Below the pieces are notes generated by a model that saw only the letters and a program-made list of their open reading frames with translations, was not told where the DNA came from and did no database searches. Both the position numbers and the translations under genes were made by a program. DNA of 64,000 nucleotides from Owenia fusiformis (taxonomy: Eukaryota > Annelida > Polychaeta > Sabellida > Oweniidae): assembly GCA_903813345.2 (NCBI GenBank), contig CAIIXF020000010.1:37189425-37253424 (forward strand), in the 5' to 3' direction. Positions 2,227-27,420 of the stretch are shown one piece after another; the first letter of the stretch is position 1; each line of letters begins with the position of its first letter.

Positions 2227-5200
2227 CTATTAGTCACATGTGAAAGTGACCAAAATTTTTTAAAACTACTCAGAATCGCCCAGAATTGAAGTTTATTAGT
2301 GTGGAACATATTTTGGACGGAGGCAAAAAGGGGAATTTTCATGAACAAATTTAATGTTTTTGCTGAATCAGCAGTTTTCGCTTTTTACCCCAAAAACCAC
2401 TGATTTTGACGATATTTGGCTACAATTTTGTCCTTAGTGACCCCTAAATGTCATTTGTTGTCGTAAATGGGGAAGCCAACGAGTTGCTATTCATAATAAA
2501 GATTGAATTTTCCATCTTATGGTTTCCAGTATAGAAAGAAGGTACATATCGGGGGTGCAGTCAGAAATTGGTGAGTTAAGTGTCAATTTTTGATGTGTTT
2601 GTTCACTCTGAATGACTACATTCGAGCTAAAATATATCTCAAAAGTCCCAATTCTCTAGGCCAGAGTCAAAACTGATCAAATTTGTCATCATTTTGCAAA
2701 TCAGGAGGTTGTTGAATGGAAAAAAGTATGAAAAAGTGATGATTTTAGTAAGATTTTGCCAAAAAGTGGGCCAAATTTGTCCAATTTTCTGGTTCACGGT
2801 TCAGTGATTTTGGCTAAAAATCGCAATATGCAATAAAATACTCAATTTCTTGACACGATAATGAAAAATGTCACCATCAGGCAGTGGATTTCATGATGTA
2901 AATGAAAAACTAGTCAAATTTAAAGGAAAACCATTGGGTTCTTGGAAAAATGACCCCAGGGGTAATGAAGTAGCCATATTTTTCATAATTGCTGTCAGAA
3001 TATTCTTAAACTGCACAAAACTACTTGAAAAACTCTAGTAAATTGGAAAAACGCAATTTAAAGCCAGAAATCATCCAACCATGTGGCTATTAGTCACATG
3101 TGAAAGTGACCAAAATTTTTTAAAACTACTCAGAATCGCCCAGAATTGAAGTTTATTAGTGTGGAACATATTTTGGACGGAGGCAAAAAGGGGAATTTTC
3201 ATGAACAAATTTAATGTTTTTGCTGAATCAGCAGTTTTCGCTTTTTACCCCAAAAACCACTGATTTTGACGATATTTGGCTACAATTTTGTCCTTAGTGA
3301 CCCCTAAATGTCATTTGTTGTCGTAAATGGGGAAGCCAACGAGTTGCTATTCATAATAAAGATTGAATTTTCCATCTTATGGTTTCCAGTATAGAAAGAA
3401 GGTACATATCGGGGGTGCAGTCAGAAATTGGTGAGTTAAGTGTCAATTTTTGATGTGTTTGTTCACTCTGAATGACTACATTCGAGCTAAAATATATCTC
3501 AAAAGTCCCAATTCTCTAGGCCAGAGTCAAAACTGATCAAATTTGTCATCATTTTGCAAATCAGGAGGTTGTTGAATGGAAAAAAGTATGAAAAAGTGAT
3601 GATTTTAGTAAGATTTTGCCAAAAAGTGGGCCAAATTTGTCCAATTTTCTGGTTCACGGTTCAGTGATTTTGGCTAAAAATCGCAATATGCAATAAAATA
3701 CTCAATTTCTTGACACGATAATGAAAAATGTCACCATCAGGCAGTGGATTTCATGATGTAAATGAAAAACTAGTCAAATTTAAAGGAAAACCATTGGGTT
3801 CTTGGAAAAATGACCCCAGGGGTAATGAAGTAGCCATATTTTTCATAATTGCTGTCAGAATATTCTTAAACTGCACAAAACTACTTGAAAAACTCTAGTA
3901 AATTGGAAAAACGCAATTTAAAGCCAGAAATCATCCAACCATGTGGCTATTAGTCACATGTGAAAGTGACCAAAATTTTTTAAAACTACTCAGAATCGCC
4001 CAGAATTGAAGTTTATTAGTGTGGAACATATTTTGGACGGAGGCAAAAAGGGGAATTTTCATGAACAAATTTAATGTTTTTGCTGAATCAGCAGTTTTCG
4101 CTTTTTACCCCAAAAACCACTGATTTTGACGATATTTGGCTACAATTTTGTCCTTAGTGACCCCTAAATGTCATTTGTTGTCGTAAATGGGGAAGCCAAC
4201 GAGTTGCTATTCATAATAAAGATTGAATTTTCCATCTTATGGTTTCCAGTATAGAAAGAAGGTACATATCGGGGGTGCAGTCAGAAATTGGTGAGTTAAG
4301 TGTCAATTTTTGATGTGTTTGTTCACTCTGAATGACTACATTCGAGCTAAAATATATCTCAAAAGTCCCAATTCTCTAGGCCAGAGTCAAAACTGATCAA
4401 ATTTGTCATCATTTTGCAAATCAGGAGGTTGTTGAATGGAAAAAAGTATGAAAAAGTGATGATTTTAGTAAGATTTTGCCAAAAAGTGGGCCAAATTTGT
4501 CCAATTTTCTGGTTCACGGTTCAGTGATTTTGGCTAAAAATCGCAATATGCAATAAAATACTCAATTTCTTGACACGATAATGAAAAATGTCACCATCAG
4601 GCAGTGGATTTCATGATGTAAATGAAAAACTAGTCAAATTTAAAGGAAAACCATTGGGTTCTTGGAAAAATGACCCCAGGGGTAATGAAGTAGCCATATT
4701 TTTCATAATTGCTGTCAGAATATTCTTAAACTGCACAAAACTACTTGAAAAACTCTAGGAAATTGGAAAAACGCAATTTAAAGCCAGAAATCATCCAACC
4801 ATGTGGCTATTAGTCACATGTGAAAGTGACCAAAATTTTTTAAAACTACTCAGAATCGCCCAGAATTGAAGTTTATTAGTGTGGAACATATTTTGGACGG
4901 AGGCAAAAAGGGGAATTTTCATGAACAAATTTAATGTTTTTGCTGAATCAGCAGTTTTCGCTTTTTACCCCAAAAACCACTGATTTTGACGATATTTGGC
5001 TACAATTTTGTCCTTAGTGACCCCTAAATGTCATTTGTTGTCGTAAATGGGGAAGCCAACGAGTTGCTATTCATAATAAAGATTGAATTTTCCATCTTAT
5101 GGTTTCCAGTATAGAAAGAAGGTACATATCGGGGGTGCAGTCAGAAATTGGTGAGTTAAGTGTCAATTTTTGATGTGTTTGTTCACTCTGAATGACTACA

Positions 5201-8200
5201 TTCGAGCTAAAATATATCTCAAAAGTCCCAATTCTCTAGGCCAGAGTCAAAACTGATCAAATTTGTCATCATTTTGCAAATCAGGAGGTTGTTGAATGGA
5301 AAAAAGTATGAAAAAGTGATGATTTTAGTAAGATTTTGCCAAAAAGTGGGCCAAATTTGTCCAATTTTCTGGTTCACGGTTCAGTGATTTTGGCTAAAAA
5401 TCGCAATATGCAATAAAATACTCAATTTCTTGACACGATAATGAAAAATGTCACCATCAGGCAGTGGATTTCATGATGTAAATGAAAAACTAGTCAAATT
5501 TAAAGGAAAACCATTGGGTTCTTGGAAAAATGACCCCAGGGGTAATGAAGTAGCCATATTTTTCATAATTGCTGTCAGAATATTCTTAAACTGCACAAAA
5601 CTACTTGAAAAACTCTAGTAAATTGGAAAAACGCAATTTAAAGCCAGAAATCATCCAACCATGTGGCTATTAGTCACATGTGAAAGTGACCAAAATTTTT
5701 TAAAACTACTCAGAATCGCCCAGAATTGAAGTTTATTAGTGTGGAACATATTTTGGACGGAGGCAAAAAGGGGAATTTTCATGAACAAATTTAATGTTTT
5801 TGCTGAATCAGCAGTTTTCGCTTTTTACCCCAAAAACCACTGATTTTGACGATATTTGGCTACAATTTTGTCCTTAGTGACCCCTAAATGTCATTTGTTG
5901 TCGTAAATGGGGAAGCCAACGAGTTGCTATTCATAATAAAGATTGAATTTTCCATCTTATGGTTTCCAGTATAGAAAGAAGGTACATATCGGGGGTGCAG
6001 TCAGAAATTGGTGAGTTAAGTGTCAATTTTTGATGTGTTTGTTCACTCTGAATGACTACATTCGAGCTAAAATATATCTCAAAAGTCCCAATTCTCTAGG
6101 CCAGAGTCAAAACTGATCAAATTTGTCATCATTTTGCAAATCAGGAGGTTGTTGAATGGAAAAAAGTATGAAAAAGTGATGATTTTAGTAAGATTTTGCC
6201 AAAAAGTGGGCCAAATTTGTCCAATTTTCTGGTTCACGGTTCAGTGATTTTGGCTAAAAATCGCAATATGCAATAAAATACTCAATTTCTTGACACGATA
6301 ATGAAAAATGTCACCATCAGGCAGTGGATTTCATGATGTAAATGAAAAACTAGTCAAATTTAAAGGAAAACCATTGGGTTCTTGGAAAAATGACCCCAGG
6401 GGTAATGAAGTAGCCATATTTTTCATAATTGCTGTCAGAATATTCTTAAACTGCACAAAACTACTTGAAAAACTCTAGGAAATTGGAAAAACGCAATTTA
6501 AAGCCAGAAATCATCCAACCATGTGGCTATTAGACACATGTGAAAGTGACCAAAATTTTTTAAAACTACTCAGAATCGCCCAGAATTGAAGTTTATTAGT
6601 GTGGAACATATTTTGGACGGAGGCAAAAAGGGGAATTTTCATGAACAAATTTAATGTTTTTGCTGAATCAGCAGTTTTCGCTTTTTACCCCAAAAACCAC
6701 TGATTTTGACGATATTTGGCTACAATTTTGTCCTTAGTGACCCCTAAATGTCATTTGTTGTCGTAAATGGGGAAGCCAACGAGTTGCTATTCATAATAAA
6801 GATTGAATTTTCCATCTTATGGTTTCCAGTATAGAAAGAAGGTACATATCGGGGGTGCAGTCAGAAATTGGTGAGTTAAGTGTCAATTTTTGATGTGTTT
6901 GTTCACTCTGAATGACTACATTCGAGCTAAAATATATCTCAAAAGTCCCAATTCTCTAGGCCAGAGTCAAAACTGATCAAATTTGTCATCATTTTGCAAA
7001 TCAGGAGGTTGTTGAATGGAAAAAAGTATGAAAAAGTGATGATTTTAGTAAGATTTTGCCAAAAAGTGGGCCAAATTTGTCCAATTTTCTGGTTCACGGT
7101 TCAGTGATTTTGGCTAAAAATCGCAATATGCAATAAAATACTCAATTTCTTGACACGATAATGAAAAATGTCACCATCAGGCAGTGGATTTCATGATGTA
7201 AATGAAAAACTAGTCAAATTTAAAGGAAAACCATTGGGTTCTTGGAAAAATGACCCCAGGGGTAATGAAGTAGCCATATTTTTCATAATTGCTGTCAGAA
7301 TATTCTTAAACTGCACAAAACTACTTGAAAAACTCTAGTAAATTGGAAAAACGCAATTTAAAGCCAGAAATCATCCAACCATGTGGCTATTAGTCACATG
7401 TGAAAGTGACCAAAATTTTTTAAAACTACTCAGAATCGCCCAGAATTGAAGTTTATTAGTGTGGAACATATTTTGGACGGAGGCAAAAAGGGGAATTTTC
7501 ATGAACAAATTTAATGTTTTTGCTGAATCAGCAGTTTTCGCTTTTTACCCCAAAAACCACTGATTTTGACGATATTTGGCTACAATTTTGTCCTTAGTGA
7601 CCCCTAAATGTCATTTGTTGTCGTAAATGGGGAAGCCAACGAGTTGCTATTCATAATAAAGATTGAATTTTCCATCTTATGGTTTCCAGTATAGAAAGAA
7701 GGTACATATCGGGGGTGCAGTCAGAAATTGGTGAGTTAAGTGTCAATTTTTGATGTGTTTGTTCACTCTGAATGACTACATTCGAGCTAAAATATATCTC
7801 AAAAGTCCCAATTCTCTAGGCCAGAGTCAAAACTGATCAAATTTGTCATCATTTTGCAAATCAGGAGGTTGTTGAATGGAAAAAAGTATGAAAAAGTGAT
7901 GATTTTAGTAAGATTTTGCCAAAAAGTGGGCCAAATTTGTCCAATTTTCTGGTTCACGGTTCAGTGATTTTGGCTAAAAATCGCAATATGCAATAAAATA
8001 CTCAATTTCTTGACACGATAATGAAAAATGTCACCATCAGGCAGTGGATTTCATGATGTAAATGAAAAACTAGTCAAATTTAAAGGAAAACCATTGGGTT
8101 CTTGGAAAAATGACCCCAGGGGTAATGAAGTAGCCATATTTTTCATAATTGCTGTCAGAATATTCTTAAACTGCACAAAACTACTTGAAAAACTCTAGTA

Positions 8201-11200
8201 AATTGGAAAAACGCAATTTAAAGCCAGAAATCATCCAACCATGTGGCTATTAGTCACATGTGAAAGTGACCAAAATTTTTTAAAACTACTCAGAATCGCC
8301 CAGAATTGAAGTTTATTAGTGTGGAACATATTTTGGACGGAGGCAAAAAGGGGAATTTTCATGAACAAATTTAATGTTTTTGCTGAATCAGCAGTTTTCG
8401 CTTTTTACCCCAAAAACCACTGATTTTGACGATATTTGGCTACAATTTTGTCCTTAGTGACCCCTAAATGTCATTTGTTGTCGTAAATGGGGAAGCCAAC
8501 GAGTTGCTATTCATAATAAAGATTGAATTTTCCATCTTATGGTTTCCAGTATAGAAAGAAGGTACATATCGGGGGTGCAGTCAGAAATTGGTGAGTTAAG
8601 TGTCAATTTTTGATGTGTTTGTTCACTCTGAATGACTACATTCGAGCTAAAATATATCTCAAAAGTCCCAATTCTCTAGGCCAGAGTCAAAACTGATCAA
8701 ATTTGTCATCATTTTGCAAATCAGGAGGTTGTTGAATGGAAAAAAGTATGAAAAAGTGATGATTTTAGTAAGATTTTGCCAAAAAGTGGGCCAAATTTGT
8801 CCAATTTTCTGGTTCACGGTTCAGTGATTTTGGCTAAAAATCGCAATATGCAATAAAATACTCAATTTCTTGACACGATAATGAAAAATGTCACCATCAG
8901 GCAGTGGATTTCATGATGTAAATGAAAAACTAGTCAAATTTAAAGGAAAACCATTGGGTTCTTGGAAAAATGACCCCAGGGGTAATGAAGTAGCCATATT
9001 TTTCATAATTGCTGTCAGAATATTCTTAAACTGCACAAAACTACTTGAAAAACTCTAGGAAATTGGAAAAACGCAATTTAAAGCCAGAAATCATCCAACC
9101 ATGTGGCTATTAGTCACATGTGAAAGTGACCAAAATTTTTTAAAACTACTCAGAATCGCCCAGAATTGAAGTTTATTAGTGTGGAACATATTTTGGACGG
9201 AGGCAAAAAGGGGAATTTTCATGAACAAATTTAATGTTTTTGCTGAATCAGCAGTTTTCGCTTTTTACCCCAAAAACCACTGATTTTGACGATATTTGGC
9301 TACAATTTTGTCCTTAGTGACCCCTAAATGTCATTTGTTGTCGTAAATGGGGAAGCCAACGAGTTGCTATTCATAATAAAGATTGAATTTTCCATCTTAT
9401 GGTTTCCAGTATAGAAAGAAGGTACATATCGGGGGTGCAGTCAGAAATTGGTGAGTTAAGTGTCAATTTTTGATGTGTTTGTTCACTCTGAATGACTACA
9501 TTCGAGCTAAAATATATCTCAAAAGTCCCAATTCTCTAGGCCAGAGTCAAAACTGATCAAATTTGTCATCATTTTGCAAATCAGGAGGTTGTTGAATGGA
9601 AAAAAGTATGAAAAAGTGATGATTTTAGTAAGATTTTGCCAAAAAGTGGGCCAAATTTGTCCAATTTTCTGGTTCACGGTTCAGTGATTTTGGCTAAAAA
9701 TCGCAATATGCAATAAAATACTCAATTTCTTGACACGATAATGAAAAATGTCACCATCAGGCAGTGGATTTCATGATGTAAATGAAAAACTAGTCAAATT
9801 TAAAGGAAAACCATTGGGTTCTTGGAAAAATGACCCCAGGGGTAATGAAGTAGCCATATTTTTCATAATTGCTGTCAGAATATTCTTAAACTGCACAAAA
9901 CTACTTGAAAAACTCTAGTAAATTGGAAAAACGCAATTTAAAGCCAGAAATCATCCAACCATGTGGCTATTAGTCACATGTGAAAGTGACCAAAATTTTT
10001 TAAAACTACTCAGAATCGCCCAGAATTGAAGTTTATTAGTGTGGAACATATTTTGGACGGAGGCAAAAAGGGGAATTTTCATGAACAAATTTAATGTTTT
10101 TGCTGAATCAGCAGTTTTCGCTTTTTACCCCAAAAACCACTGATTTTGACGATATTTGGCTACAATTTTGTCCTTAGTGACCCCTAAATGTCATTTGTTG
10201 TCGTAAATGGGGAAGCCAACGAGTTGCTATTCATAATAAAGATTGAATTTTCCATCTTATGGTTTCCAGTATAGAAAGAAGGTACATATCGGGGGTGCAG
10301 TCAGAAATTGGTGAGTTAAGTGTCAATTTTTGATGTGTTTGTTCACTCTGAATGACTACATTCGAGCTAAAATATATCTCAAAAGTCCCAATTCTCTAGG
10401 CCAGAGTCAAAACTGATCAAATTTGTCATCATTTTGCAAATCAGGAGGTTGTTGAATGGAAAAAAGTATGAAAAAGTGATGATTTTAGTAAGATTTTGCC
10501 AAAAAGTGGGCCAAATTTGTCCAATTTTCTGGTTCACGGTTCAGTGATTTTGGCTAAAAATCGCAATATGCAATAAAATACTCAATTTCTTGACACGATA
10601 ATGAAAAATGTCACCATCAGGCAGTGGATTTCATGATGTAAATGAAAAACTAGTCAAATTTAAAGGAAAACCATTGGGTTCTTGGAAAAATGACCCCAGG
10701 GGTAATGAAGTAGCCATATTTTTCATAATTGCTGTCAGAATATTCTTAAACTGCACAAAACTACTTGAAAAACTCTAGTAAATTGGAAAAACGCAATTTA
10801 AAGCCAGAAATCATCCAACCATGTGGCTATTAGTCACATGTGAAAGTGACCAAAATTTTTTAAAACTACTCAGAATCGCCCAGAATTGAAGTTTATTAGT
10901 GTGGAACATATTTTGGACGGAGGCAAAAAGGGGAATTTTCATGAACAAATTTAATGTTTTTGCTGAATCAGCAGTTTTCGCTTTTTACCCCAAAAACCAC
11001 TGATTTTGACGATATTTGGCTACAATTTTGTCCTTAGTGACCCCTAAATGTCATTTGTTGTCGTAAATGGGGAAGCCAACGAGTTGCTATTCATAATAAA
11101 GATTGAATTTTCCATCTTATGGTTTCCAGTATAGAAAGAAGGTACATATCGGGGGTGCAGTCAGAAATTGGTGAGTTAAGTGTCAATTTTTGATGTGTTT

Positions 11201-13413
11201 GTTCACTCTGAATGACTACATTCGAGCTAAAATATATCTCAAAAGTCCCAATTCTCTAGGCCAGAGTCAAAACTGATCAAATTTGTCATCATTTTGCAAA
11301 TCAGGAGGTTGTTGAATGGAAAAAAGTATGAAAAAGTGATGATTTTAGTAAGATTTTGCCAAAAAGTGGGCCAAATTTGTCCAATTTTCTGGTTCACGGT
11401 TCAGTGATTTTGGCTAAAAATCGCAATATGCAATAAAATACTCAATTTCTTGACACGATAATGAAAAATGTCACCATCAGGCAGTGGATTTCATGATGTA
11501 AATGAAAAACTAGTCAAATTTAAAGGAAAACCATTGGGTTCTTGGAAAAATGACCCCAGGGGTAATGAAGTAGCCATATTTTTCATAATTGCTGTCAGAA
11601 TATTCTTAAACTGCACAAAACTACTTGAAAAACTCTAGTAAATTGGAAAAACGCAATTTAAAGCCAGAAATCATCCAACCATGTGGCTATTAGTCACATG
11701 TGAAAGTGACCAAAATTTTTTAAAACTACTCAGAATCGCCCAGAATTGAAGTTTATTAGTGTGGAACATATTTTGGACGGAGGCAAAAAGGGGAATTTTC
11801 ATGAACAAATTTAATGTTTTTGCTGAATCAGCAGTTTTCGCTTTTTACCCCAAAAACCACTGATTTTGACGATATTTGGCTACAATTTTGTCCTTAGTGA
11901 CCCCTAAATGTCATTTGTTGTCGTAAATGGGGAAGCCAACGAGTTGCTATTCATAATAAAGATTGAATTTTCCATCTTATGGTTTCCAGTATAGAAAGAA
12001 GGTACATATCGGGGGTGCAGTCAGAAATTGGTGAGTTAAGTGTCAATTTTTGATGTGTTTGTTCACTCTGAATGACTACATTCGAGCTAAAATATATCTC
12101 AAAAGTCCCAATTCTCTAGGCCAGAGTCAAAACTGATCAAATTTGTCATCATTTTGCAAATCAGGAGGTTGTTGAATGGAAAAAAGTATGAAAAAGTGAT
12201 GATTTTAGTAAGATTTTGCCAAAAAGTGGGCCAAATTTGTCCAATTTTCTGGTTCACGGTTCAGTGATTTTGGCTAAAAATCGCAATATGCAATAAAATA
12301 CTCAATTTCTTGACACGATAATGAAAAATGTCACCATCAGGCAGTGGATTTCATGATGTAAATGAAAAACTAGTCAAATTTAAAGGAAAACCATTGGGTT
12401 CTTGGAAAAATGACCCCAGGGGTAATGAAGTAGCCATATTTTTCATAATTGCTGTCAGAATATTCTTAAACTGCACAAAACTACTTGAAAAACTCTAGGA
12501 AATTGGAAAAACGCAATTTAAAGCCAGAAATCATCCAACCATGTGGCTATTAGTCACATGTGAAAGTGACCAAAATTTTTTAAAACTACTCAGAATCGCC
12601 CAGAATTGAAGTTTATTAGTGTGGAACATATTTTGGACGGAGGCAAAAAGGGGAATTTTCATGAACAAATTTAATGTTTTTGCTGAATCAGCAGTTTTCG
12701 CTTTTTACCCCAAAAACCACTGATTTTGACGATATTTGGCTACAATTTTGTCCTTAGTGACCCCTAAATGTCATTTGTTGTCGTAAATGGGGAAGCCAAC
12801 GAGTTGCTATTCATAATAAAGATTGAATTTTCCATCTTATGGTTTCCAGTATAGAAAGAAGGTACATATCGGGGGTGCAGTCAGAAATTGGTGAGTTAAG
12901 TGTCAATTTTTGATGTGTTTGTTCACTCTGAATGACTACATTCGAGCTAAAATATATCTCAAAAGTCCCAATTCTCTAGGCCAGAGTCAAAACTGATCAA
13001 ATTTGTCATCATTTTGCAAATCAGGAGGTTGTTGAATGGAAAAAAGTATGAAAAAGTGATGATTTTAGTAAGATTTTGCCAAAAAGTGGGCCAAATTTGT
13101 CCAATTTTCTGGTTCACGGTTCAGTGATTTTGGCTAAAAATCGCAATATGCAATAAAATACTCAATTTCTTGACACGATAATGAAAAATGTCACCATCAG
13201 GCAGTGGATTTCATGATGTAAATGAAAAACTAGTCAAATTTAAAGGAAAACCATTGGGTTCTTGGAAAAATGACCCCAGGGGTAATGAAGTAGCCATATT
13301 TTTCATAATTGCTGTCAGAATATTCTTAAACTGCACAAAACTACTTGAAAAACTCTAGGAAATTGGAAAAACGCAATTTAAAGCCAGAAATCATCCAACC
13401 ATGTGGCTATTAG

Positions 13414-13876
13414 GCCAAAATGCCCTAATACGTCACTTCCGCTGAATAGAAAAAAGTAGTATTCAAAAATAAATGTAGTCCCAACACAATTGTGATCATG
13501 ACGAGTCAGTAAGCTAGTATGTAGGCACAGTTGTAATCTTTTTGCAATGACAACATGCCATTTCTTCTGAAAATGCGTTTATTTGGTTTATCTGAAGGAA
13601 AATTTCGAGTCAAGTGGCGTATTAATTTTGCCTTCATTTTTGTGAATTTCAATTTGTGTCTGCAGAGAGAGGGGGTAGTGTCACAATTGACCAATTATTT
13701 CAAAAAGTAGATGATTGGCCCCTATTGAGTTTAGTGTCAAGATGTAGCTTAGACATAGCTTTAGAACCTCAGATAGGCCAGTGAGGCCACATAAATCCAT
13801 AACTCGAGATAAAAAGTCAGGCGTTTGCCCTTTTGCCCATTGACTAGTATGGTGACGTGAATTAGGGCAGTTTTGC
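13414..13876. mobile_element. 463-bp TIR element (MITE) in satellite, copy 2
   Basis: This matches the copy at 1764-2226 base for base as far as I can read, lies at the same unit position, and has the same CTATTAG flanks (13407-13413 and 13877-13883). The distance between copies is 11,650 bp, which is 13 satellite units plus one element with its duplication. The simplest reading is one insertion copied with the surrounding satellite, not two independent insertions. Confidence 0.85.
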
Positions 13877-15627
13877 CTATTAGTCACATGTGAAAGTGAC
13901 CAAAATTTTTTAAAACTACTCAGAATCGCCCAGAATTGAAGTTTATTAGTGTGGAACATATTTTGGACGGAGGCAAAAAGGGGAATTTTCATGAACAAAT
14001 TTAATGTTTTTGCTGAATCAGCAGTTTTCGCTTTTTACCCCAAAAACCACTGATTTTGACGATATTTGGCTACAATTTTGTCCTTAGTGACCCCTAAATG
14101 TCATTTGTTGTCGTAAATGGGGAAGCCAACGAGTTGCTATTCATAATAAAGATTGAATTTTCCATCTTATGGTTTCCAGTATAGAAAGAAGGTACATATC
14201 GGGGGTGCAGTCAGAAATTGGTGAGTTAAGTGTCAATTTTTGATGTGTTTGTTCACTCTGAATGACTACATTCGAGCTAAAATATATCTCAAAAGTCCCA
14301 ATTCTCTAGGCCAGAGTCAAAACTGATCAAATTTGTCATCATTTTGCAAATCAGGAGGTTGTTGAATGGAAAAAAGTATGAAAAAGTGATGATTTTAGTA
14401 AGATTTTGCCAAAAAGTGGGCCAAATTTGTCCAATTTTCTGGTTCACGGTTCAGTGATTTTGGCTAAAAATCGCAATATGCAATAAAATACTCAATTTCT
14501 TGACACGATAATGAAAAATGTCACCATCAGGCAGTGGATTTCATGATGTAAATGAAAAACTAGTCAAATTTAAAGGAAAACCATTGGGTTCTTGGAAAAA
14601 TGACCCCAGGGGTAATGAAGTAGCCATATTTTTCATAATTGCTGTCAGAATATTCTTAAACTGCACAAAACTACTTGAAAAACTCTAGTAAATTGGAAAA
14701 ACGCAATTTAAAGCCAGAAATCATCCAACCATGTGGCTATTAGTCACATGTGAAAGTGACCAAAATTTTTTAAAACTACTCAGAATCGCCCAGAATTGAA
14801 GTTTATTAGTGTGGAACATATTTTGGACGGAGGCAAAAAGGGGAATTTTCATGAACAAATTTAATGTTTTTGCTGAATCAGCAGTTTTCGCTTTTTACCC
14901 CAAAAACCACTGATTTTGACGATATTTGGCTACAATTTTGTCCTTAGTGACCCCTAAATGTCATTTGTTGTCGTAAATGGGGAAGCCAACGAGTTGCTAT
15001 TCATAATAAAGATTGAATTTTCCATCTTATGGTTTCCAGTATAGAAAGAAGGTACATATCGGGGGTGCAGTCAGAAATTGGTGAGTTAAGTGTCAATTTT
15101 TGATGTGTTTGTTCACTCTGAATGACTACATTCGAGCTAAAATATATCTCAAAAGTCCCAATTCTCTAGGCCAGAGTCAAAACTGATCAAATTTGTCATC
15201 ATTTTGCAAATCAGGAGGTTGTTGAATGGAAAAAAGTATGAAAAAGTGATGATTTTAGTAAGATTTTGCCAAAAAGTGGGCCAAATTTGTCCAATTTTCT
15301 GGTTCACGGTTCAGTGATTTTGGCTAAAAATCGCAATATGCAATAAAATACTCAATTTCTTGACACGATAATGAAAAATGTCACCATCAGGCAGTGGATT
15401 TCATGATGTAAATGAAAAACTAGTCAAATTTAAAGGAAAACCATTGGGTTCTTGGAAAAATGACCCCAGGGGTAATGAAGTAGCCATATTTTTCATAATT
15501 GCTGTCAGAATATTCTTAAACTGCACAAAACTACTTGAAAAACTCTAGTAAATTGGAAAAACGCAATTTAAAGCCAGAAATCATCCAACCATGTGGCTAT
15601 TAATGTTCCAAGCTTCGCTTCAATCTA

Positions 15628-15804: not shown

Positions 15805-15880
15805 CACCATTTGCATTCGTTTGACTTCGCTTCTTAAAAGAGAGCGTCGTCTTCAATAGCAAGACTCTGCGCGCAGGGTA
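15805..15880 (+). mobile_element. ~76-bp dispersed mini-element, copy A
   Basis: This shares the interior (TTTGCATTCGTTTGACTTC at one end, AGACTCTGC...GCAGGGTA at the other) with the copies at 19115 and 58696. The flanks CTATACATC and CATCTATAC are similar but not a clean direct repeat, so the target site has decayed or the ends differ slightly. There is no coding capacity. Confidence 0.7.
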
Positions 15881-18881: not shown

Positions 18882-19321
18882 ATGTCAAAGGTACAAGAAA
18901 TCTTGTTTGTGTTAGATGCCAATACAAAACATCTTATGCTTTTTCGTCTAGATGTAAAAGCAAGAGCAGGAATGTTTAACTTTAATGGATGCCAAAGTTG
19001 CAGCAAAAATAACAAAAACTCACTTTTTCAAAAAGTTCTCATTTATTTTATGAATCATAATGTCAAAGAAACAGTTCTTATTTCTTCAAATATGTCAAAA
19101 GTTTAACGTTTTGTTACCCTTTGCATTCGTTTGACTTCACTTTTTAAAAGAGAGCTTCGTGTAGTTTAACTAGACTCTGCACGCAGGGTAACGTTTTGTT
19201 TAATTGATGTCAAAGAAAGAATAAGTTGTCAAAACAAGAATAAGTTGTTTTGTTTAATTGATGTCAAAGAAACAACACGTTCTGATTTATTTTCTAATGT
19301 CAAATCACATCAATTGTCTAT
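18882..19321 (+). repeat. degenerate ATGTCAAAG repeat upstream of the 445-aa gene
   Basis: ATGTCAAA recurs at 18882, 19060, 19092, 19207, 19261 and 19297. The copies at 19207 and 19261 share a longer context (TTGTTTAATTG before, AAGAAA after). Spacing is irregular, about 36-180 bp. The copy at 19261 continues AAACAACACGTTCTG and resembles the first codons of the gene at 19352. It is interrupted by the mini-element at 19115. Confidence 0.55.
19115..19190 (+). mobile_element. 76-bp mini-element with 9-bp target duplication, copy B
   Basis: TACCCT at the left end and AGGGTA at the right end form a short inverted repeat. ACGTTTTGT flanks both sides (19106-19114 and 19191-19199), a perfect 9-bp target-site duplication. 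The interior matches the copies at 15805 and 58696. A 9-bp duplication is typical of Mutator-like elements, but at this size nothing else can assign the superfamily. Confidence 0.85.
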
Positions 19322-19351
19322 CAAAAATACAATTTATATTTCAATTTTCAG

Positions 19352-20689
19352 ATGTCCAAGATACAACAAGTCCTGCGCTGGTTGAAGGAGAAGAAGGGTA
19401 CCACGGAGAACCGAGATTCAAAGGCTGACATGGAAGAGAGGGCCGCACTTTGCCCTACCCGGAGACAACTCCCACCTGTCCCAGCCACTGGCCGTCATAG
19501 CACTCTGATCAGCCAAAACGTGTATGAGGAAATTCCAGACGATAAAATATATTACGTCAGGACAAAATTCCCTTATGCGTATATTGAATCTCAAAATCTG
19601 TCCAAGAAACAAAATCCTCTATATAGAAGCCAAGACAATATTGAGCCTGACATCATCAGGGACGCTGAGAAGTCAGGGCCTGATTATAGAGATCACCCGC
19701 TTCTGTTTCAATGGTGCCCACGATGTAAAATACAGTGGTTTGGCGACTTCCAACTTTGTTTAAAATGTGGTGGTGAAAATGAGCCATTGAATCATTATGA
19801 AGGTGACCGGGTGCGGCACATGTACGAATGCATTCCGTACGAGGTCAGTCACGTGACTCCTTTAGATGGCGCCACTGGAGGTGATTCAGCAGACGGCAGG
19901 GTGTCGTATCTGCAACTCCCGGAGGATGAATTATTTCAAAGTAGTGATTTTCAATATCAGTTTGCCAGAGATAGGATAGCGTATAATATGCTACTAGGGG
20001 TCAATGAGGACACAAGGCCGCCACTTGTAGGGGATTCGAGGGCAAGTTACCCTCAAGCCGATGGTTATGATCACGCCATGTTAAAACCTAAACATAAATC
20101 CCAACCTCTTAGACACCAAGGATTATCTTTCAAAAACAAACCTCACTTAAAAGCTTTCCAACCCCTTATGGAAACAACAAACAGCGGTAGTCATGGTAAC
20201 GGTGGTTACTGGGAGCTGGATTCTTGCACCCCTCCCGCAAGTCCGGGTGGATATTTGATCCCAGCACAGAGTAAAACTAACATACCACAGTGTCAGGATT
20301 CTAGCTTTAATAGCAAACCCGATCACCGTCTTACCGAGTCATCCACTGATCTAAACAATTTCACATTCGTGGCCCCACGTGCAACTAGGTGCAAATCAAC
20401 ACCAAATTTCCACAACCGAAGTAGCGTGGTCAAGGGTGAGAATGGACGCATAAGTATGGGGAATATAAACATGAGTTATCACGAAATGGACCCCGAGGAT
20501 CGGCTATCCTGTAGGGCCACAAATTTTAAACTTAATAAACCACTAGCTAAGCCAAAAGTGACAATTGATAACATCAAATCGGATGAATACGATGAATATG
20601 ATTATAACGGAGGATCAGGCGACAGCTCGAGAGCTCTAAATAAAACACTAGAGTATCTCCTCCAGAGAAACTTTGACAGACTTATCTGA
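19352..20689 (+). CDS. 445-aa putative SH3/SH2-ligand scaffold protein with zinc ribbon
   Basis: I do not recognise a named family. Residues 1-16 form a short basic helix-like segment. R38-P44 (RQLPPVP) fits the class I Src-type SH3 ligand RxLPPxP. Y58-I61 (YEEI, in NVYEEIPD) fits the preferred Src-family SH2 ligand. C122, C125, C136 and C139 form a CxxC-x10-CxxC zinc-ribbon pattern. The middle (170-380) is low complexity with scattered PxxP and Tyr. 383-396 is DRLSCRATNFKLNK, shared with the paralogue at 25033-26748. The tail has an acidic Asp/Tyr stretch (411-418) and a Leu-rich helix (429-441). The ORF is uninterrupted. The ATG directly follows a splice acceptor (TTTTCAG at 19351), so a 5'UTR exon or upstream coding exons exist. 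The paralogue aligns from its own Met1, which supports this start. AATAAA at 21123 is a possible poly(A) signal. The signalling role is inferred from motifs. Confidence 0.85.
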   Translation: MSKIQQVLRWLKEKKGTTENRDSKADMEERAALCPTRRQLPPVPATGRHSTLISQNVYEEIPDDKIYYVRTKFPYAYIESQNLSKKQNPLYRSQDNIEPDIIRDAEKSGPDYRDHPLLFQWCPRCKIQWFGDFQLCLKCGGENEPLNHYEGDRVRHMYECIPYEVSHVTPLDGATGGDSADGRVSYLQLPEDELFQSSDFQYQFARDRIAYNMLLGVNEDTRPPLVGDSRASYPQADGYDHAMLKPKHKSQPLRHQGLSFKNKPHLKAFQPLMETTNSGSHGNGGYWELDSCTPPASPGGYLIPAQSKTNIPQCQDSSFNSKPDHRLTESSTDLNNFTFVAPRATRCKSTPNFHNRSSVVKGENGRISMGNINMSYHEMDPEDRLSCRATNFKLNKPLAKPKVTIDNIKSDEYDEYDYNGGSGDSSRALNKTLEYLLQRNFDRLI

Positions 20690-22611
20690 ACGATACATAT
20701 CCGCCACGCTTTGACGCATTTTCTGTAAATCAACGCTTCTAAGGGCATTCAATGTTAGCTGTACGTTTAACGTCCCTTCATTTTCCTCAAAGAATGAGAC
20801 ATTTTCTTTATATTTATGATCTAGAATCATATTAAACAGAATTCCTGGTTTAAAACAATTTTATCTCTGCTATCATATTGTTTTTATTAAATCGTTTACT
20901 CGAACGCAAAGGGCGTGTTCCATCATAACACACAAGAAACCCATTATGGCATATATAATACATGTTTCTTGTTAAATGCGTACCGTTTTTCACCTAAGAG
21001 TCTCCCCTCGCCAAAACGTTAAACATATAATTAACTTTGAATGACCTGATTAAAACGACGAATTGTATGAATAACAATGTGAATGTAAGCGTTTTTTCAC
21101 ATCCAGAATTATATACAGCGGAAATAAATAGAAACCTCTGCCAAATTGTTATTCAAATTCATTATCATTTAACACCATATCAAGAAAATTTCTATAAAAG
21201 AGTGTCCGACTGAGAAAGAAATGGTTTCACTAAATGTTGTTCAGGACGATAAATACATCCAATGTTCTATAAGATGGCGTTGGAATAGACTTAACTCAGA
21301 TTTTAGAATTGTATAAAATGGAAATAACTAGACACAACTTATGTGTTTCCACTTATGATGACACTTAGCGTCCAACTGAGCTCAGACTGAAGAATGCTTT
21401 GCACATCAGTCTATTAAATCCCTCCGAGTGTCAGAGGCCAGCGTGCTAGCAAAGTAAATGAAGCTTTCTTTTGAAGAAGTTAGATAAAACAATTGAAAAG
21501 GCTTTTGTATTCCTTCTGACTACCTTGACGAATCAAGATGACCAAGATTAACCAGAACACCAGGCTATGCATACGGTGCTGTACATAAACAAGCGGCGCG
21601 GATATCATGTGCGCATGGTGCATTTTCAAACTTAAATTCGTAATATTTCCCAAACAAAGGCATGCTGGGTACTCAGTTATATTCATACATGTGCACAAGC
21701 TCCCTGATAAGAGGAAATTGTGTCAATAGGTGTGTACTTCATTCTAGAGCGACACATCATGCAACAATACTCTCTCCTAAGCAAATAAAGTGACAGACAT
21801 CCGCACCGTTTGTTTAAAGGAAGCACATTTCCGAAAGGTGATTTCATTTTTTCAAAAATTCAAACAGAAAGTTTATGACTTTCAAAATTTAAACAAAAAT
21901 TAATATCGATACGTCATCTCGATCACCAATGCTGAATGAAGGCTGTAATTATAAACGGTGTCTTAAAGCGGCAGTTTCAATTGCTTTTGCTTTGGAGAAA
22001 AGATGAATGCTCAGTGCGTCATTAAAGAACAATGTACATAATTATAGACAAAATTTCCCTCCTATTACGTATCCCCTACAAATGGGTGAATATAATTGAG
22101 TACCAAAATGCTTTACGTGTAGTTCCTGAAATAACACAAACCAAATTAAAAAAATGACCGTTGAAGTCCGCATCGTGCGCTCGTGATATCCGCACCGCTT
22201 CTTTTCGTATAGCAAAGTCTGTATAGGGTGCAATATATCGAGTGCATTAGATGAAACTTTCTTTTAAAGAGCAAATTCAAACTACTGTACTCCCCACCAT
22301 GTCTTAAACAATTCAAGATAGATATATTAAATTTTCTATAAGCTATTTCATTAAAGTAAAGATGGCGCTGAAGTAGCCTTTTATTAATGTTTGCTACATG
22401 CACTATAACATAAAAGATGGCAGCATTATTCATCAGTTACATGAACGTTTACAAGAACGGCAAAGTCCTCTAGCGATCCACAGCGTCTACGGATTTATAG
22501 AAAATATTATCTATGCATATCTGAATGCATCTCGGCAGCACATCCAGGATTAGAAATAGGCGAGGCAAATAGAAACATAAATAAGGCAAATCTTAATTTA
22601 CAATAACTCAA
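20690..22611. other. intergenic, 3' side of 445-aa gene
   Basis: AT-rich sequence with no supportable gene. The reading frames here (for example 21480-21698 and 22146-22433 on the minus strand) have no recognisable motif and odd composition. TCCGCACCG occurs near 21799 and 22189 but has no extended similarity by eye. Confidence 0.6.
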
Positions 22612-22657
22612 CCAAGGTCATTCATTGAATGGTTGTCAAGGTGACAACTTGACTTTA
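22612..22657 (+). repeat. 46-bp dispersed repeat with hairpin, copy 1
   Basis: This is near-identical, with one A/G difference seen, to 55728-55773. Both contain GTTGTCA AGG TGACAAC, a 7-bp stem around a 3-base loop. Similarity fades on both sides, so this is the core of a short dispersed element. No target duplication is visible. Confidence 0.75.
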
Positions 22658-22796
22658 ACTTGATTCAAATTGATGCTTGACCAACTTGACCCTTGCGCAT
22701 CTCGTGCAAAGGTTGAAATAAAGCCTTTTTGAGGAATGATTCAGCCCATGATTCAGTCCACTAGGCCGATGATATCACACTCGGCCGTGCTCGATT

Positions 22797-23372
22797 CGAT
22801 GAATGCATCAAACTGAATGTCAAAGTTACGATGAATGCAATAAACTGAATGTTGAAGATACGATGGATGCATCAAACTGAATGTCAAAGATACGATGAAT
22901 GCATCAAACTGAAGGTTAAAGATACGATGAATGCAATAAACTGAATGTTGAAGATACGATGGATGCATCAAACTGAATGTCAAAGATACGATGAGTGCAT
23001 CAATCTGAATGTCAAAGATACGATGAATGCATCAAACTGAATGTCAAACATACGATGAATGCAATTAACTGAATGTCAAAGATACGATGAATGTAACAAA
23101 CTGAATGTTGAGGATACGATGAATGTAACAAACTGAATGTTGAGGATACGATGAATGTAACAAACTGAATGTCAAACATACGATGAATGCAATAAACTGA
23201 ATGTCAAAGATACGATGAATGTAACAAACTAAATGTTGAAGATACGATTGATGCATCAAACTGAGGGTCAGAGATACGATGAATGCATCGAATTGAATGT
23301 CAGAGATACGATGAATGTAACAAACTGAATGCTGAAGATACGATCAATGCATCAAACGGAATGTGAAAGATA
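22797..23372 (+). repeat. 32-bp minisatellite, ~18 copies
   Basis: Units of about 32 bp built on ATACGATGAATGCATCAAAC plus TGAATGTCAAAG repeat with point changes (CATC/AATA/GTAACA variants, GTCAAAG/GTTGAAG variants). Reading frames on the minus strand across the array (22753-22983, 23065-23259) translate the repeat and are not genes. Confidence 0.95.
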
Positions 23373-24695
23373 CGATACTTTGATGCCAGCAAGATAGTAA
23401 ACGTATACATTGAAATCGGTTCATGTTGTTTTTTCATTGTTTTTTATTATATAATTCAAGGCTTGAACAAGTCATACTTAATAACAAATAACCATCTAAA
23501 CATATTTATATCGCAAGCATTGCAATGATGGATCTTTCTGTTATTCTAGCATTTCTTAAAACGCATCCATATAGAGCCCATCATAGCAATGTTACATAAT
23601 CATAACATAACGATGTTAAAGTCACCCCAATTTCGACAAAACAAAAGGCTTGCACAATAAGCAGCTCTACAAAGCAGGTTGTCAAAATTACAAAATCAGA
23701 TAAAAAGAATGACACTATATTAGTCTAAACATTTGTTTGCAAGATTCGGTTTCACCAAATAAGCATCTGTTGTTCAAAGTTAGTATTTCATTTATTATAA
23801 ATATTTTATTTAATACAAATATAAGAATTTGTTTTACTGGTAAATAGGATGAATGATATTGTGTATTTGTTCAATGAACTATAACATAAACTAAAGTGTA
23901 TGCAATTTGGCATGCATTGTCGTGACATCTATCTATAGTATGAATGAGTACACATTCTAATACATTAGATCTATAATAAGTACACATTCTAATACTCTAA
24001 AATAAGAACACATTCTAATACTCAAGTCAAAACCAGAACAATCAGCAAAGAAGCATTGTCAAAGCGAAACTCAATAACATTTCTTGAAAATAACAAATAA
24101 TAGATCTACGATATAAGGCACACAAGGTTGGCTAAGCGTTACGAACCATTGACGTCAAAGAGATACTAAGGAGGTTAAGCTACTTGTACGTGAAGAAACG
24201 TGAAGCTTAATCTCCCTATTTACAGTTTAACAAATGTAAGCTCTAGATTTCAGAACCAGCTAACAGAGCTCTATGGCAAAATAAAGTTTAAGCTTATGTA
24301 AAACTAAACATGATGACTTAGAGCGCGAATTGAAACTAAAATTTGCACAGCAACGTGGCCGATAATATGTGAACGAGGTAGAGGCGACTCTCATTTATTA
24401 TGACATTTGCGTCAGAGAATTGTTGTATGTGACTTGATTTTGTGAAAACCTCTAGACCAGGGGAATAACCAATCATTTTCAGTCTCGAAACTAACCAGGA
24501 AATGAGTCGTTAGTATTATACACTAATCCCAGATGACTGTGCCGTTCTACTGTCTCATATAATCGGATTGAAAGCGTAGTAAATTAATCCACGATTTATT
24601 CCAATACTTTCGTCATTCAAGAAAATTGTTGCCATGGTGTCAGGTTTTCACAAAATAAAGGCTTTATATTATGAAGCATCTCTGACTGAGGATTA
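23373..24695. other. intergenic between convergent genes
   Basis: AT-rich, no gene seen. TTTATT at 24595-24600 (AATAAA on the minus strand) is a possible, rather distant, poly(A) signal for the gene at 25033-26748. Short TACACATTCTAATAC repeats occur at 23950-24020. Confidence 0.5.
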
Positions 24696-24875
24696 TACAC
24701 TTCCCTCCAAAAGTTTGACAATTGGAAGCCCCCATCTGGATCACTTGTCAAAGCTTCTTTCGTCCGAACGTTTGTTATAAAGAAACATAATCAAGATTCA
24801 AGCATTAAGAAGCCTTGATGCTATCATGCTATCCAATGGATATTCCAGGTTTCTAAACTTGTGGAGGGGAGTGTA
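24696..24875. mobile_element. 180-bp Tc1/mariner-like MITE
   Basis: Ends are TACACTTCCCTCCA on the left and TACACTCCCCTCCA read from the right, with similarity continuing through AAGTTT for about 30 bp. TA flanks each side (24694-24695, 24876-24877), consistent with a TA target duplication. It has no ORF. It lies about 160 bp downstream of the stop codon of the 571-aa gene, so it may fall in that gene's 3'UTR. Confidence 0.75.
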
Positions 24876-25032
24876 TATAAATGATTTAGTCAAGCCTTTT
24901 TAACTTCCATGACACCACTTGTCATAGAAGACTTGTCCAATTCAAGAATAAAGGTGCAAATTATGCAGTTAACCGTGACTTAAATATAATATTTAAATTG
25001 CAATAAATATCAGAAACACATTGATGTACATA

Positions 25033-26748
25033 TTACATAAACAGAAACGATTGTCTATGGTTATTCTGTCTGATCATATCAGATAACATCCGGTTGCTAT
25101 GTTGACGCTGTACGTTGGTATGGTTACCGTACATAGAACCATAAAGATCGTCTGATTGTGCTATCCCTGTGGATGTCAATGGTATTAGATTTTGGCGTAA
25201 TTTATTAGGGTTGTAGTTTGTCACTCTGCACGATAATCGGTCCATTCTATGAAACGCTCCTGTTGTTTGTGCATTGATTGTTGTGTCATCTTTGGAAGAC
25301 GTGATGTTCGAATGATCGGGCTCATCCAAACTTAAAATTTCCTCAAGTGTTTTTCGTGTTTGTTTCTCTTTCCGTTTTTCCGCTTTATGTGAAACAGTTC
25401 GTTTTGAAGTTGAGGTTAACGTAGAGGCTCTATGAATGTCAGTGTCATTTACAGAATGTGTCTGTCTTGGGCTACCAGGCTTCGGATGGGATGCCTCTTG
25501 GCTCCCTTTCTTTCGAAACATTCTTGATTCTGCATGTAGTTTTTTTGGATGTCCCGACTCATTTTCTAACTTCGATGGACTAGAAAACGGAGGGATAGTG
25601 TCGATATCTGTTGAAATGGACGCATGCGCTCTGGATAACTTTTTCGATCGTGAGCGACAATTGGTTGGTAAAGTATGAGATACACTCTCATTGTCGCTAT
25701 TATCAGTTGAGCTTTTTATCAACTGAACCACTTGTTGTTTTAACGTGTGATTCTGGTGTACTTTTGCAAGGAAATAATCGTACTCCGCGTCGGATTTATC
25801 AGAATATTGCTCAGCTATCTCCGCCTGGTAGCATTGACTACACTGGCAAAAATTCAAATTATTAAAATATTTTTGGTCACTGGTCTTGGCCTCGTTATCG
25901 TACAAGTGATATTCCCGAGTGCGCATTCGCGAATCTTCAATATCCCCAAAGCTGCCACCGCTGTCATGGAAACCATCAGATGGCGAAAATGTGTACGCAG
26001 TGTCTATATCGTCCATGTTATCCAAATCGGCATTGATATCGTATTCATTGAATGTTCCATTACTTGCATTTCCTAAACTGTTTCCGCTTTTTATTGAGCT
26101 TCGTTTACTACTGGTTGGGCTCGTTGAACTAAGAGCACTACCGTAGCTATCACAAGAACCATTGTAATCGCTGCTAGAGATATCCGCTGAATCAACACTT
26201 TTTGTAGACTCACGAGCTGCTTGAAAAAATACGTCATTGACTTGAAAAGATTTCTTAGGCTGGGATTGGAGGTCAGTTCGAGATGCAGTTTTCTTTGGTT
26301 CCACTCGATGATTTAACTCGGGTTTGAACTCACCCATAGAACTCCTTTTTGAGGTACTTTTGTGCAAATCCTCATTATTTGAGTTTGTCTGAATATTGTC
26401 TTTGTGTTTGGCTACATTACTATTTTCAGTTGTTATTATGTCACCTATAGATGGCACTCTGTCAGAGTCAAGAGATGTATCTCCTACGGGAGATCGTTTT
26501 GCTTTATTTCTGCTCCTTGTTGTCACAGTAGGAACAATGAAATCGGGGATTTCTTCGTAGATATGAGCCGGGCTATCACATACTCTTGGTTTGCGTTTTC
26601 CATCTGCGCCAAATCCATACTCGTCTATGTAGTGAGGTGGGAGAGGTGGTAGCGCTCTGTTCGCGTGTTTTATGTCGCTATCAGAATTCTCACGCAGTTT
26701 CTTCGTTTTGTCTCTCAATCGTTTCAATAAGATCTGAACTGCAGCCAT
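25033..26748 (-). CDS. 571-aa putative SH3/SH2-ligand scaffold, paralogue of 445-aa protein
   Basis: Unrecognised family. It shares ordered blocks with the protein at 19352-20689. Residues 1-18 are a basic helix-like segment (AVQILLKRLRDKTKK). R31-P38 (RALPPLPP) is a textbook class I Src SH3 ligand. Y64-I67 (YEEI, in HIYEEIPD) is a Src-family SH2-type ligand. C301, C303 and C306 form a reduced cysteine cluster without the second CxxC of a zinc ribbon. 503-516 is DRLSCRVTNYNPNK. The rest is Ser/Thr/Asn-rich and probably disordered, with Ser-rich tracts at 180-230 and a basic Lys/Arg stretch at 449-466. The coding region is one exon. On the minus strand a polypyrimidine tract and CTCCAG acceptor lie 43 nt upstream of the ATG, and an in-frame TAG just after it supports this Met as the start. 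A second acceptor (TTCCACAG) is 4 nt upstream. The genes are convergent, so they look like an old inverted duplication. Confidence 0.87.
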   Translation of the reverse strand: MAAVQILLKRLRDKTKKLRENSDSDIKHANRALPPLPPHYIDEYGFGADGKRKPRVCDSPAHIYEEIPDFIVPTVTTRSRNKAKRSPVGDTSLDSDRVPSIGDIITTENSNVAKHKDNIQTNSNNEDLHKSTSKRSSMGEFKPELNHRVEPKKTASRTDLQSQPKKSFQVNDVFFQAARESTKSVDSADISSSDYNGSCDSYGSALSSTSPTSSKRSSIKSGNSLGNASNGTFNEYDINADLDNMDDIDTAYTFSPSDGFHDSGGSFGDIEDSRMRTREYHLYDNEAKTSDQKYFNNLNFCQCSQCYQAEIAEQYSDKSDAEYDYFLAKVHQNHTLKQQVVQLIKSSTDNSDNESVSHTLPTNCRSRSKKLSRAHASISTDIDTIPPFSSPSKLENESGHPKKLHAESRMFRKKGSQEASHPKPGSPRQTHSVNDTDIHRASTLTSTSKRTVSHKAEKRKEKQTRKTLEEILSLDEPDHSNITSSKDDTTINAQTTGAFHRMDRLSCRVTNYNPNKLRQNLIPLTSTGIAQSDDLYGSMYGNHTNVQRQHSNRMLSDMIRQNNHRQSFLFM

Positions 26749-27420
26749 CTTGCTGTGGAATATGCTGTTACCGTAACTTCTTTGTGACTACCTGGAGATA
26801 CAAAAGAGAAATAAATTTAAACACTGTTGGAGGGAAAACATATATGTAAATATCCTGCATGAAGACCCTGTATAGTCTATCATTCACAATCTCTTGTCAG
26901 GCTCGTGCACGACAGCACATGCGTGCCATCATTAAACGATAATGGACGAAATGTGATCACATCGTCACTACGCATGATATACATTGATATAGCATTATTT
27001 AGCAACCGATGTCGTTAATTGCTACATTTTACATAGCGCATCCGGACATGATTGCGCTGCAACTGGCGGAGTGATCTGACAAGGTGAGACACGTGACATA
27101 TCATTTTGAAATGGACATCCGTGATTGATTAGTTCCATTAGTTGACTCACTTGTTAATATAAAATGACCAACTGAACCAATGATCCATTTGCTTTTTACA
27201 TTAATCACTGCATGAACTTTCACTGATATTGTTTCATTTGAGTGTTACCTCTTGTGAATGTTTGTTATTTGAAATATGTTATCATTGATTGCGTGTGTTC
27301 TAACGGTTGAATAATATGATGGTGAAGTTGGTGACACTAAAGCTAGAATATGAACCTATCCGAACTCAATTAAATCGATGGCATCCTACTGTTTAAGTAA
27401 GTATTCAAAACGAAATACTC

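What the first reader, a model, noticed from the sequence alone, without database searches (positions are those of the whole stretch)
19352..26748. Convergent paralogue pair carrying adjacent Src-type SH3 and SH2 ligand motifs
Seen: 445-aa and 571-aa proteins share RxLPPxP (38-44; 31-37) followed by YEEIPD (58-63; 64-69), then a Cys cluster and DRLSCRxTN, in the same order, while the rest has diverged. Known: RxLPPxP is the class I Src SH3 consensus and pYEEI the optimal Src-family SH2 ligand. Inference: conserved bidentate docking for a Src-type kinase in two disordered scaffolds I cannot assign to a known family. The pair looks like an inverted tandem duplication.
Basis: partly seen in the sequence, partly recalled or inferred. 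Interest (0 to 1): 0.72.

Follow-up and report, generated by a model that had tools for sequence, protein, structure and literature searches.

The report
Paired disordered proteins with Src-docking motifs
Two neighbouring, unnamed genes in animal-like DNA encode mostly unstructured proteins that share little beyond two short blocks, one of which carries textbook docking sites for a Src-type signalling enzyme, so they may be a pair of natural Src scaffolds, although no binding has been tested.

Summary
The central observation holds. Protein A (19352-20689, +, 445 aa) and protein B (25033-26748, -, 571 aa) are convergent paralogues. Detectable similarity is confined to an N-terminal block (basic start, RxLPPxP, [VI]YEEIPD) and a DRLSCRxTN block; silent sites in these blocks are randomised while residues are kept. 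One detail fails: the two 'Cys clusters' are not alike beyond chance.

B's RALPPLP equals the core of the Src-SH3 peptide RLP2, and pYEEI is a high-affinity Src-family SH2 ligand. FAK uses the same order, R-to-Tyr spacing 29; here it is 20 and 33. Best reading, inferred from motifs: disordered adaptors that dock, and may open, a Src-family kinase through SH3 and SH2 together.

Pfam, NCBIfam and PDB searches of the full proteins gave no match. I rate it a new member of a known kind (FAK/Cas-type Src docking), of moderate interest.

The parts
19352..20689 (+). Gene A coding sequence, 445 aa, uninterrupted
   Evidence: no Pfam, NCBIfam or PDB match
19333..19351 (+). Putative 3' splice site (pyrimidine-rich tract ending CAG) directly before the ATG of gene A: possible intron in the 5' leader
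   Evidence: sequence read directly; inference, no transcript data
19352..19396 (+). A residues 1-15, basic N terminus, similar to B, helical in the model
   Evidence: A1-35 vs B1-30: 2 of 2000 shuffles reach the score; helix 2-15 in a low-confidence model
19463..19483 (+). A residues 38-44, RQLPPVP, class I SH3 ligand motif
   Evidence: class I consensus from PMC4877006 passages
19523..19540 (+). A residues 58-63, YEEIPD (preceded by V), Src-family SH2 ligand motif if phosphorylated
   Evidence: ligand data from PMC5547543 and PMC4140816 passages
19715..19768 (+). A residues 122-139, CxxC-x10-CxxC, possible zinc knuckle, in A only
   Evidence: two short strands between the Cys pairs in two low-confidence models; no Pfam match
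20498..20524 (+). A residues 383-391, DRLSCRATN, conserved block of unknown role
   Evidence: A370-400 vs B490-520: 0 of 2000 shuffles
20624..20683 (+). A residues 425-444, predicted C-terminal amphipathic helix; resemblance to B's tail not significant
   Evidence: low confidence; helical moment rank 3 of 432 windows; tail comparison reached by 654 of 2000 shuffles
25033..26748 (-). Gene B coding sequence, 571 aa, uninterrupted
   Evidence: no Pfam, NCBIfam or PDB match
26792..26815 (-). Putative 3' splice site (pyrimidine tract ending CCAG) 43 nt before the ATG of gene B
   Evidence: sequence read directly; inference
26695..26748 (-). B residues 1-18, basic N terminus, similar to A
   Evidence: its helical moment is unremarkable from residue 1 (rank 132 of 558) and higher from residue 4 (rank 24 of 558)
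26638..26658 (-). B residues 31-37, RALPPLP, identical to the first seven residues of Src-SH3 ligand RLP2 (RALPPLPRY)
   Evidence: PMC4877006 passages
26542..26559 (-). B residues 64-69, YEEIPD (preceded by I)
25831..25848 (-). B residues 301-306, CQCSQC; not detectably related to A's Cys cluster
   Evidence: 943 of 2000 shuffles
25216..25242 (-). B residues 503-511, DRLSCRVTN

Best explanation
A and B are paralogous, largely disordered cytoplasmic adaptors whose N-terminal block is a two-site docking module for a Src-family kinase. RxLPPxP would bind the SH3 domain. The tyrosine of [VI]YEEIPD would be phosphorylated (hydrophobic residue before Tyr, acidic residues after it) and then bind the SH2 domain. 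Engaging both domains would release the closed kinase, as described for FAK, and hold it on the scaffold so that it could phosphorylate further tyrosines there (22 Tyr in A, 17 in B). The basic N terminus may add membrane or partner binding, and DRLSCRxTN would bind another, unknown factor. Shown here: paralogy, retention of both motifs with silent sites randomised, order and spacing, no recognised domain. Inferred: phosphorylation, Src binding, kinase activation, cytoplasmic location, the roles of the N terminus and of DRLSCRxTN.
For: Similarity is limited to the blocks: PxxP-YEEIPD stretch 0 of 2000 shuffles, DRLSC stretch 0 of 2000, middle 252 of 300. Of 33 identical residues counted in the blocks, 12 share the codon against 12.9 expected from codon usage; five of the six YEEIPD codons and seven of the eight identical DRLSCRxTN codons differ silently. 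RALPPLP is the first seven residues of the Src-SH3 peptide RLP2 (PMC4877006, passages). A pYEEI tail binds the Hck SH2 domain about 150-fold better than the natural tail motif (PMC5547543, passage). YEEIP was built into the tails of Src, Fyn, Hck and Lyn to allow tail autophosphorylation and a down-regulated state, and pYEEI is described there as binding SH2 much more tightly than the natural tail (PMC4140816, passages). Avian FAK has RALPSIP at 368-374 as its Src SH3 site (PMC6528292, passages), and pY397 binds the Src SH2 domain (PMC7072507, passages). R-to-Tyr distance: 20 in A, 33 in B, 29 in FAK. Low structure: mean pLDDT 30.3 for A; both proteins on the disordered side of the charge-hydropathy line, A narrowly; no transmembrane-like stretch (maximum 19-aa hydropathy 0.18 and 0.32).
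Against: Only two sequences exist for comparison, and the blocks were picked after seeing them. Within RxLPPxP four of the five identical residues keep the same codon, so the silent-site argument does not hold for that motif taken alone. Many SH3 domains accept class I motifs (recalled); [RK]xxPxxP alone arises in 26517 of 100000 shuffles of A and 14711 of 100000 of B. No expression, phosphorylation or binding data. DRLSCRxTN is as conserved as the docking motifs and has no Src explanation. The low pLDDT of A rests on a two-sequence alignment and would also occur for an unfamiliar fold; B was not modelled.
Confidence: 0.5

Rival explanations
1. The two motifs serve different partners: an SH3 protein other than Src (for example a PI3K-, Abl- or endocytic-type SH3) at RxLPPxP, and a separate SH2 adaptor or kinase at pYEEI. 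The proteins are general tyrosine-phosphorylated adaptors, not dedicated Src scaffolds.
For: Class I motifs are widely shared among SH3 domains (recalled). The spacer between the motifs differs by 13 residues between paralogues (14 and 27 from the last P to Y), as expected if no fixed two-site geometry is needed. Both proteins have many other tyrosines.
Against: The combination of near-ideal Src-type SH3 and SH2 ligands in the FAK order, kept in both paralogues, is more specific than either alone.
Confidence: 0.27
2. YEEIPD is not a phosphotyrosine site. It is part of a constitutive peptide motif, such as a YxxPhi adaptor-binding signal or a short folding element, and LPPxP binds a WW, EVH1 or similar domain.
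For: YEEI also fits YxxPhi (recalled). Conservation extends to P and D after YEEI, beyond what the SH2 core needs. The N-terminal block remains similar without YEEIPD (A1-57 vs B1-63, 0 of 2000 shuffles), so it may be one larger interaction surface.
Against: No transmembrane-like stretch that would make a sorting signal meaningful. Acidic residues at +1 and +2 are unusual for AP-2 signals (recalled). Engineered YEEIP tails show that this context works as a kinase substrate and SH2 ligand.
Confidence: 0.15
3. Coincidence or non-genic: the ORFs are decayed mobile-element proteins, and the shared motifs carry no signalling function.
For: The window is repeat-rich (satellites, foldbacks and a reverse-transcriptase fragment), and no transcript data are available.
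Against: Two intact long frames, silent-site randomisation with residue retention, putative splice acceptors before both ATGs, tblastn of each protein against the window finding only itself and the other gene, and no mobile-element family match.
Confidence: 0.05

Closest known systems
Focal adhesion kinase (FAK) FERM-kinase linker
   Same: Class I Src-SH3 motif RALPSIP (368-374) followed by a tyrosine SH2 site (Y397), 29 residues from R to Y; lies in an interdomain linker; docking displaces both inhibitory contacts of Src (passages of PMC6528292, PMC7072507, PMC4140816).
   Different: FAK is a FERM-kinase-FAT enzyme that autophosphorylates Y397. A and B have no recognised domain. Their SH2 site is YEEI.
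p130Cas Src-binding domain
   Same: RPLPSPP and YDYVHL as paired binding sites for the Src SH3 and SH2 domains in a docking protein (PMC5556061 passage).
   Different: Cas has its own SH3 domain, 15 YxxP repeats and a C-terminal homology domain. A has one YxxP and B none, and neither has an SH3 match in Pfam.
Laboratory ligands: RLP2 (RALPPLPRY) and YEEIP-tailed Src-family kinases
   Same: B's RALPPLP is identical over seven residues to RLP2. YEEIP is the sequence engineered into Hck, Lyn, Fyn and Src tails.
   Different: Those are a synthetic peptide and engineered tails. Here both kinds of site lie near each other in natural open reading frames.

Membership tests
Src-family bidentate docking adaptors (a functional kind) | Class I or II SH3 ligand near a Src-type pY-x-x-I/V/L SH2 ligand in flexible sequence | tested here: met
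   Motifs and spacing; low predicted order
Src-family bidentate docking adaptors (a functional kind) | Demonstrated binding to Src SH3 and SH2, with phosphorylation of the tyrosine | not testable with these tools
   No binding or phosphoproteome data held
Src-family bidentate docking adaptors (a functional kind) | Both motifs retained among homologues | tested here: inconclusive
   Retained in the one paralogue pair; no metazoan collection; 0 relatives confirmed among 80 pattern-matched stretches of viral contigs and 64 of genome contigs
FAK/Pyk2 family | FERM, tyrosine kinase and FAT domains | tested here: not met
   No Pfam family at E up to 1 for either full protein
Cas family (p130Cas/NEDD9/EFS) | N-terminal SH3, YxxP substrate repeats, C-terminal Cas homology domain | tested here: not met
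   No Pfam match; Y..P count 1 in A and 0 in B
Zinc-ribbon or RanBP2-type zinc finger proteins (A only) | CxxC-x10-CxxC plus family-specific residues | tested here: inconclusive
   Spacing present at A122-139; no Pfam match for the 51-aa fragment at E up to 10; low-confidence strands

The most novel reading that the evidence does not exclude
A previously undescribed, probably invertebrate, family of intrinsically disordered Src activators. It is a natural counterpart of the laboratory RLP2 and YEEIP ligands, in which SH3 and SH2 docking sites sit side by side near the N terminus. Two neighbouring paralogues would use different spacers (last P to Y, 14 and 27 residues) to tune how strongly the kinase is opened, coupled to a second conserved DRLSCRxTN module that localises the kinase or links it to another partner.
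Probability: 0.2. Interest if true: 0.6.

Novelty: new member of a known kind. Interest (0 to 1): 0.42.

Why it matters
If true, it would add a scaffold family without recognised domains to the proteins that dock both regulatory domains of Src at once, as FAK and Cas do. The two paralogues, with different spacers between near-ideal ligands, would be a natural experiment on how linker length controls Src activation. It would also give a first functional hypothesis to two anonymous open reading frames, and it defines DRLSCRxTN as a conserved motif needing a partner.

Tried and rejected
Family assignment: Pfam, NCBIfam, PDB sequences by phmmer and by two-sequence profile gave nothing for A or B, apart from one sub-threshold Pfam row for the B tail fragment (DUF2783, E 0.12, 12.5 bits against a cut-off of 25). 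PHROGs gave one row for B 291-340 (phrog_31922, E 0.0051, unknown function). I treat both as chance. Scans of viral contigs and genome contigs with the pair alignment confirmed no relative among 80 and 64 pattern-matched stretches; these collections hold viral, bacterial and archaeal DNA, so this says nothing about animals. PADLOC and the phage, plasmid and E. coli collections were not searched.

Cys-cluster homology was tested and rejected (943 of 2000 shuffles). C-tail homology was tested and is not significant (654 of 2000), although the model shows a helix in A. DNA-level evidence for the duplication was sought and not found. Resemblance of the start of gene A to an upstream ATGTCAAAG-type repeat (window 19260-19284) scored 30 against a shuffle maximum of 32 in 200 and was rejected. 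Structure searches against libraries were not run because both models are low-confidence (mean pLDDT 30.3 and 48.8). B was not modelled.

Literature: strings from the two proteins were searched in the held papers (2 papers hold any of the five strings, both only RALPPLP). Searches (15 listed of 271; 9 of 9; 10 of 66; 10 of 14; 8 of 16; 3 of 3) looked for docking literature. I saw no listed title or abstract start that describes these proteins, but most listed papers were not opened, and most hits of the two largest searches were not listed. Eight papers were seen as passages only (PMC4877006, PMC6528292, PMC10939263, PMC4140816, PMC5556061, PMC2956669, PMC7072507, PMC5547543); the passages of PMC10939263 and PMC2956669 added nothing used here. 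The rest were seen as search listings.

Slips: the 'SD' block was registered one residue off in B; it still counts one identical D pair and does not alter the conclusion. The motif text column printed empty; the positions are given.
Full report
What is there. The window is AT-rich DNA (GC 0.28-0.38 in 2-kb steps), rich in tandem and dispersed repeats, for which no genome is held; I infer a eukaryote, probably an animal. Of 7 ORFs of at least 100 aa only two exceed 150 aa: gene A, 19352-20689 on the + strand (445 aa), and gene B, 25033-26748 on the - strand (571 aa). They are convergent, about 4.3 kb apart. In 20 first-order simulations of the non-satellite 48.5 kb the longest frame was 161 codons, so frames of this length are very unlikely by chance. 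Both ATGs follow a plausible 3' splice site, directly in A and 43 nt upstream in B; I infer a leader intron and an uninterrupted coding region in both. That A and B align from residue 1 supports the chosen starts.

Are they paralogues? BLASTP's two best segments are colinear, E 6e-4 (A1-72/B1-78) and E 1e-3 (A375-396/B498-516). In 1000 shuffles that kept regional composition, neither the N-terminal score (65) nor the C-terminal score (63) was reached, while the best whole-length score was reached 9 times. Stretch by stretch: residues 1-35/1-30, 2 of 2000 shuffles; the PxxP-YEEIPD stretch, 0 of 2000; the DRLSC stretch, 0 of 2000; the middle, 252 of 300; the C-tail, 654 of 2000; the Cys regions, 943 of 2000. 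So the proteins share two blocks and nothing else that I could detect.

Constraint. Of 33 identical non-Met, non-Trp residues counted in the blocks, 12 have the same codon, against 12.9 expected from the genes' own codon usage. Silent positions are therefore about as different as unrelated codon choice would make them, while the residues stayed. Two limits: the blocks were chosen for similarity, so this speaks to age and protein-level retention and not to the number of conserved residues; and inside RxLPPxP four of five identical residues keep their codon, unlike YEEIPD (one of six) and DRLSCRxTN (one of eight).

The motifs. A has R38-QLPPVP-44 and Y58-EEIPD-63; B has R31-ALPPLP-37 and Y64-EEIPD-69. 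Each is the only RxLPPxP, the only [RK]xxPxxP and the only YEEI of its protein. The ordered pair within 50 residues did not occur in 100000 shuffles of either protein; the loose SH3 consensus alone occurred in 26517 and 14711 of 100000, so the specific RxLPPxP form and its neighbour carry the signal. RALPPLPRY is the class I Src-SH3 peptide RLP2 of structure 1RLP (PMC4877006, passages). A pYEEI tail binds the Hck SH2 domain about 150-fold better than the natural tail motif (PMC5547543, passage), and Src, Fyn, Hck and Lyn have been given YEEIP tails that autophosphorylate (PMC4140816, passages). The residue before Tyr is V in A and I in B; the Src-optimal substrate peptide quoted in PMC5547543 also has I there.

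Comparison with known systems. FAK carries RALPSIP at 368-374 and Y397 and binds the Src SH3 and SH2 domains through them (PMC6528292, PMC7072507, passages), which disrupts both inhibitory contacts of Src (PMC4140816, passage). R-to-Tyr spacing is 29 in FAK, 20 in A and 33 in B. p130Cas pairs RPLPSPP with YDYVHL (PMC5556061, passage). A and B work, on this reading, like these docking sites, but they belong to neither family: no FERM, kinase, SH3 or other Pfam domain was found in the full proteins, and YxxP is nearly absent.

Rest of the proteins. The two-sequence AlphaFold2 model of A has mean pLDDT 30.3, with a helix at 2-15, short strands at 127-130 and 133-136 between the two CxxC pairs, and a helix at 425-444; the Cys fragment alone again gives two short strands, at low confidence. 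B was not modelled. Both proteins lie on the disordered side of the charge-hydropathy boundary, A narrowly, and have no transmembrane-like stretch. A's C-x2-C-x10-C-x2-C is suggestive of a zinc knuckle, unproven. The N terminus is basic in both, but its amphipathic moment is only high in A from residue 1 (rank 13 of 432) and in B from residue 4 (rank 24 of 558; rank 132 from residue 1). DRLSCRxTN is as strongly kept as the docking motifs and its role is unknown.

Verdict. The Src-docking reading is the most economical one (0.5) but rests on motif identity and one paralogue pair. The rival readings are separate SH3 and SH2 partners (0.27), a non-phosphotyrosine role (0.15) and no signalling function (0.05).

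Noticed in passing
window 34-15033: Satellite of 860-bp units, 17 copies of a 300-bp reference stretch at 99-100% identity. Two intervals are 1330 instead of 860 bp and lie 11,650 bp apart, which suggests a higher-order repeat (12 x 860 + 1330). The two 105-aa ORFs at 2031 and 13681 are also 11,650 bp apart.
   Followed up: partly
window 54475-54888 (-): Fragment with a reverse-transcriptase zinc-binding region: Pfam zf-RVT, E 2.5e-11; probably a non-LTR retrotransposon remnant (inference).
   Followed up: partly
window 46076-47215 and 50854-52033: Inverted pair of about 1.2-kb sequences, 75.5% identical, with related minisatellites near each (45888-46073; 52550-52916).
   Followed up: no
window 47984-48378; 49674-49883; 50006-50129; 50346-50585; 56840-56955: Imperfect palindromes of 116-395 bp, foldback/MITE-like.
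   Followed up: no
window 15806-15880, 19115-19191, 58696-58776: Dispersed element of about 80 bp, 84-93% identical; one copy lies about 160 bp upstream of gene A, in its putative leader intron.
   Followed up: no
window, + strand: The 8-mer ATGTCAAA occurs 29 times on the + strand and 3 times on the - strand; it is part of several minisatellite units and also recurs upstream of gene A.
   Followed up: partly
window 25729-25878 (-), B residues 291-340: Weak PHROGs match (phrog_31922, E 0.0051, unknown function) over B's CxCxxC region, probably chance.
   Followed up: no
window 20585-20605 (+), A residues 412-418: Acidic tyrosine cluster EYDEYDY in A, about 30 residues after the start of DRLSCRxTN; B has LYGSMYGN about 33 residues after. 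Possible further phosphotyrosine sites.
   Followed up: no
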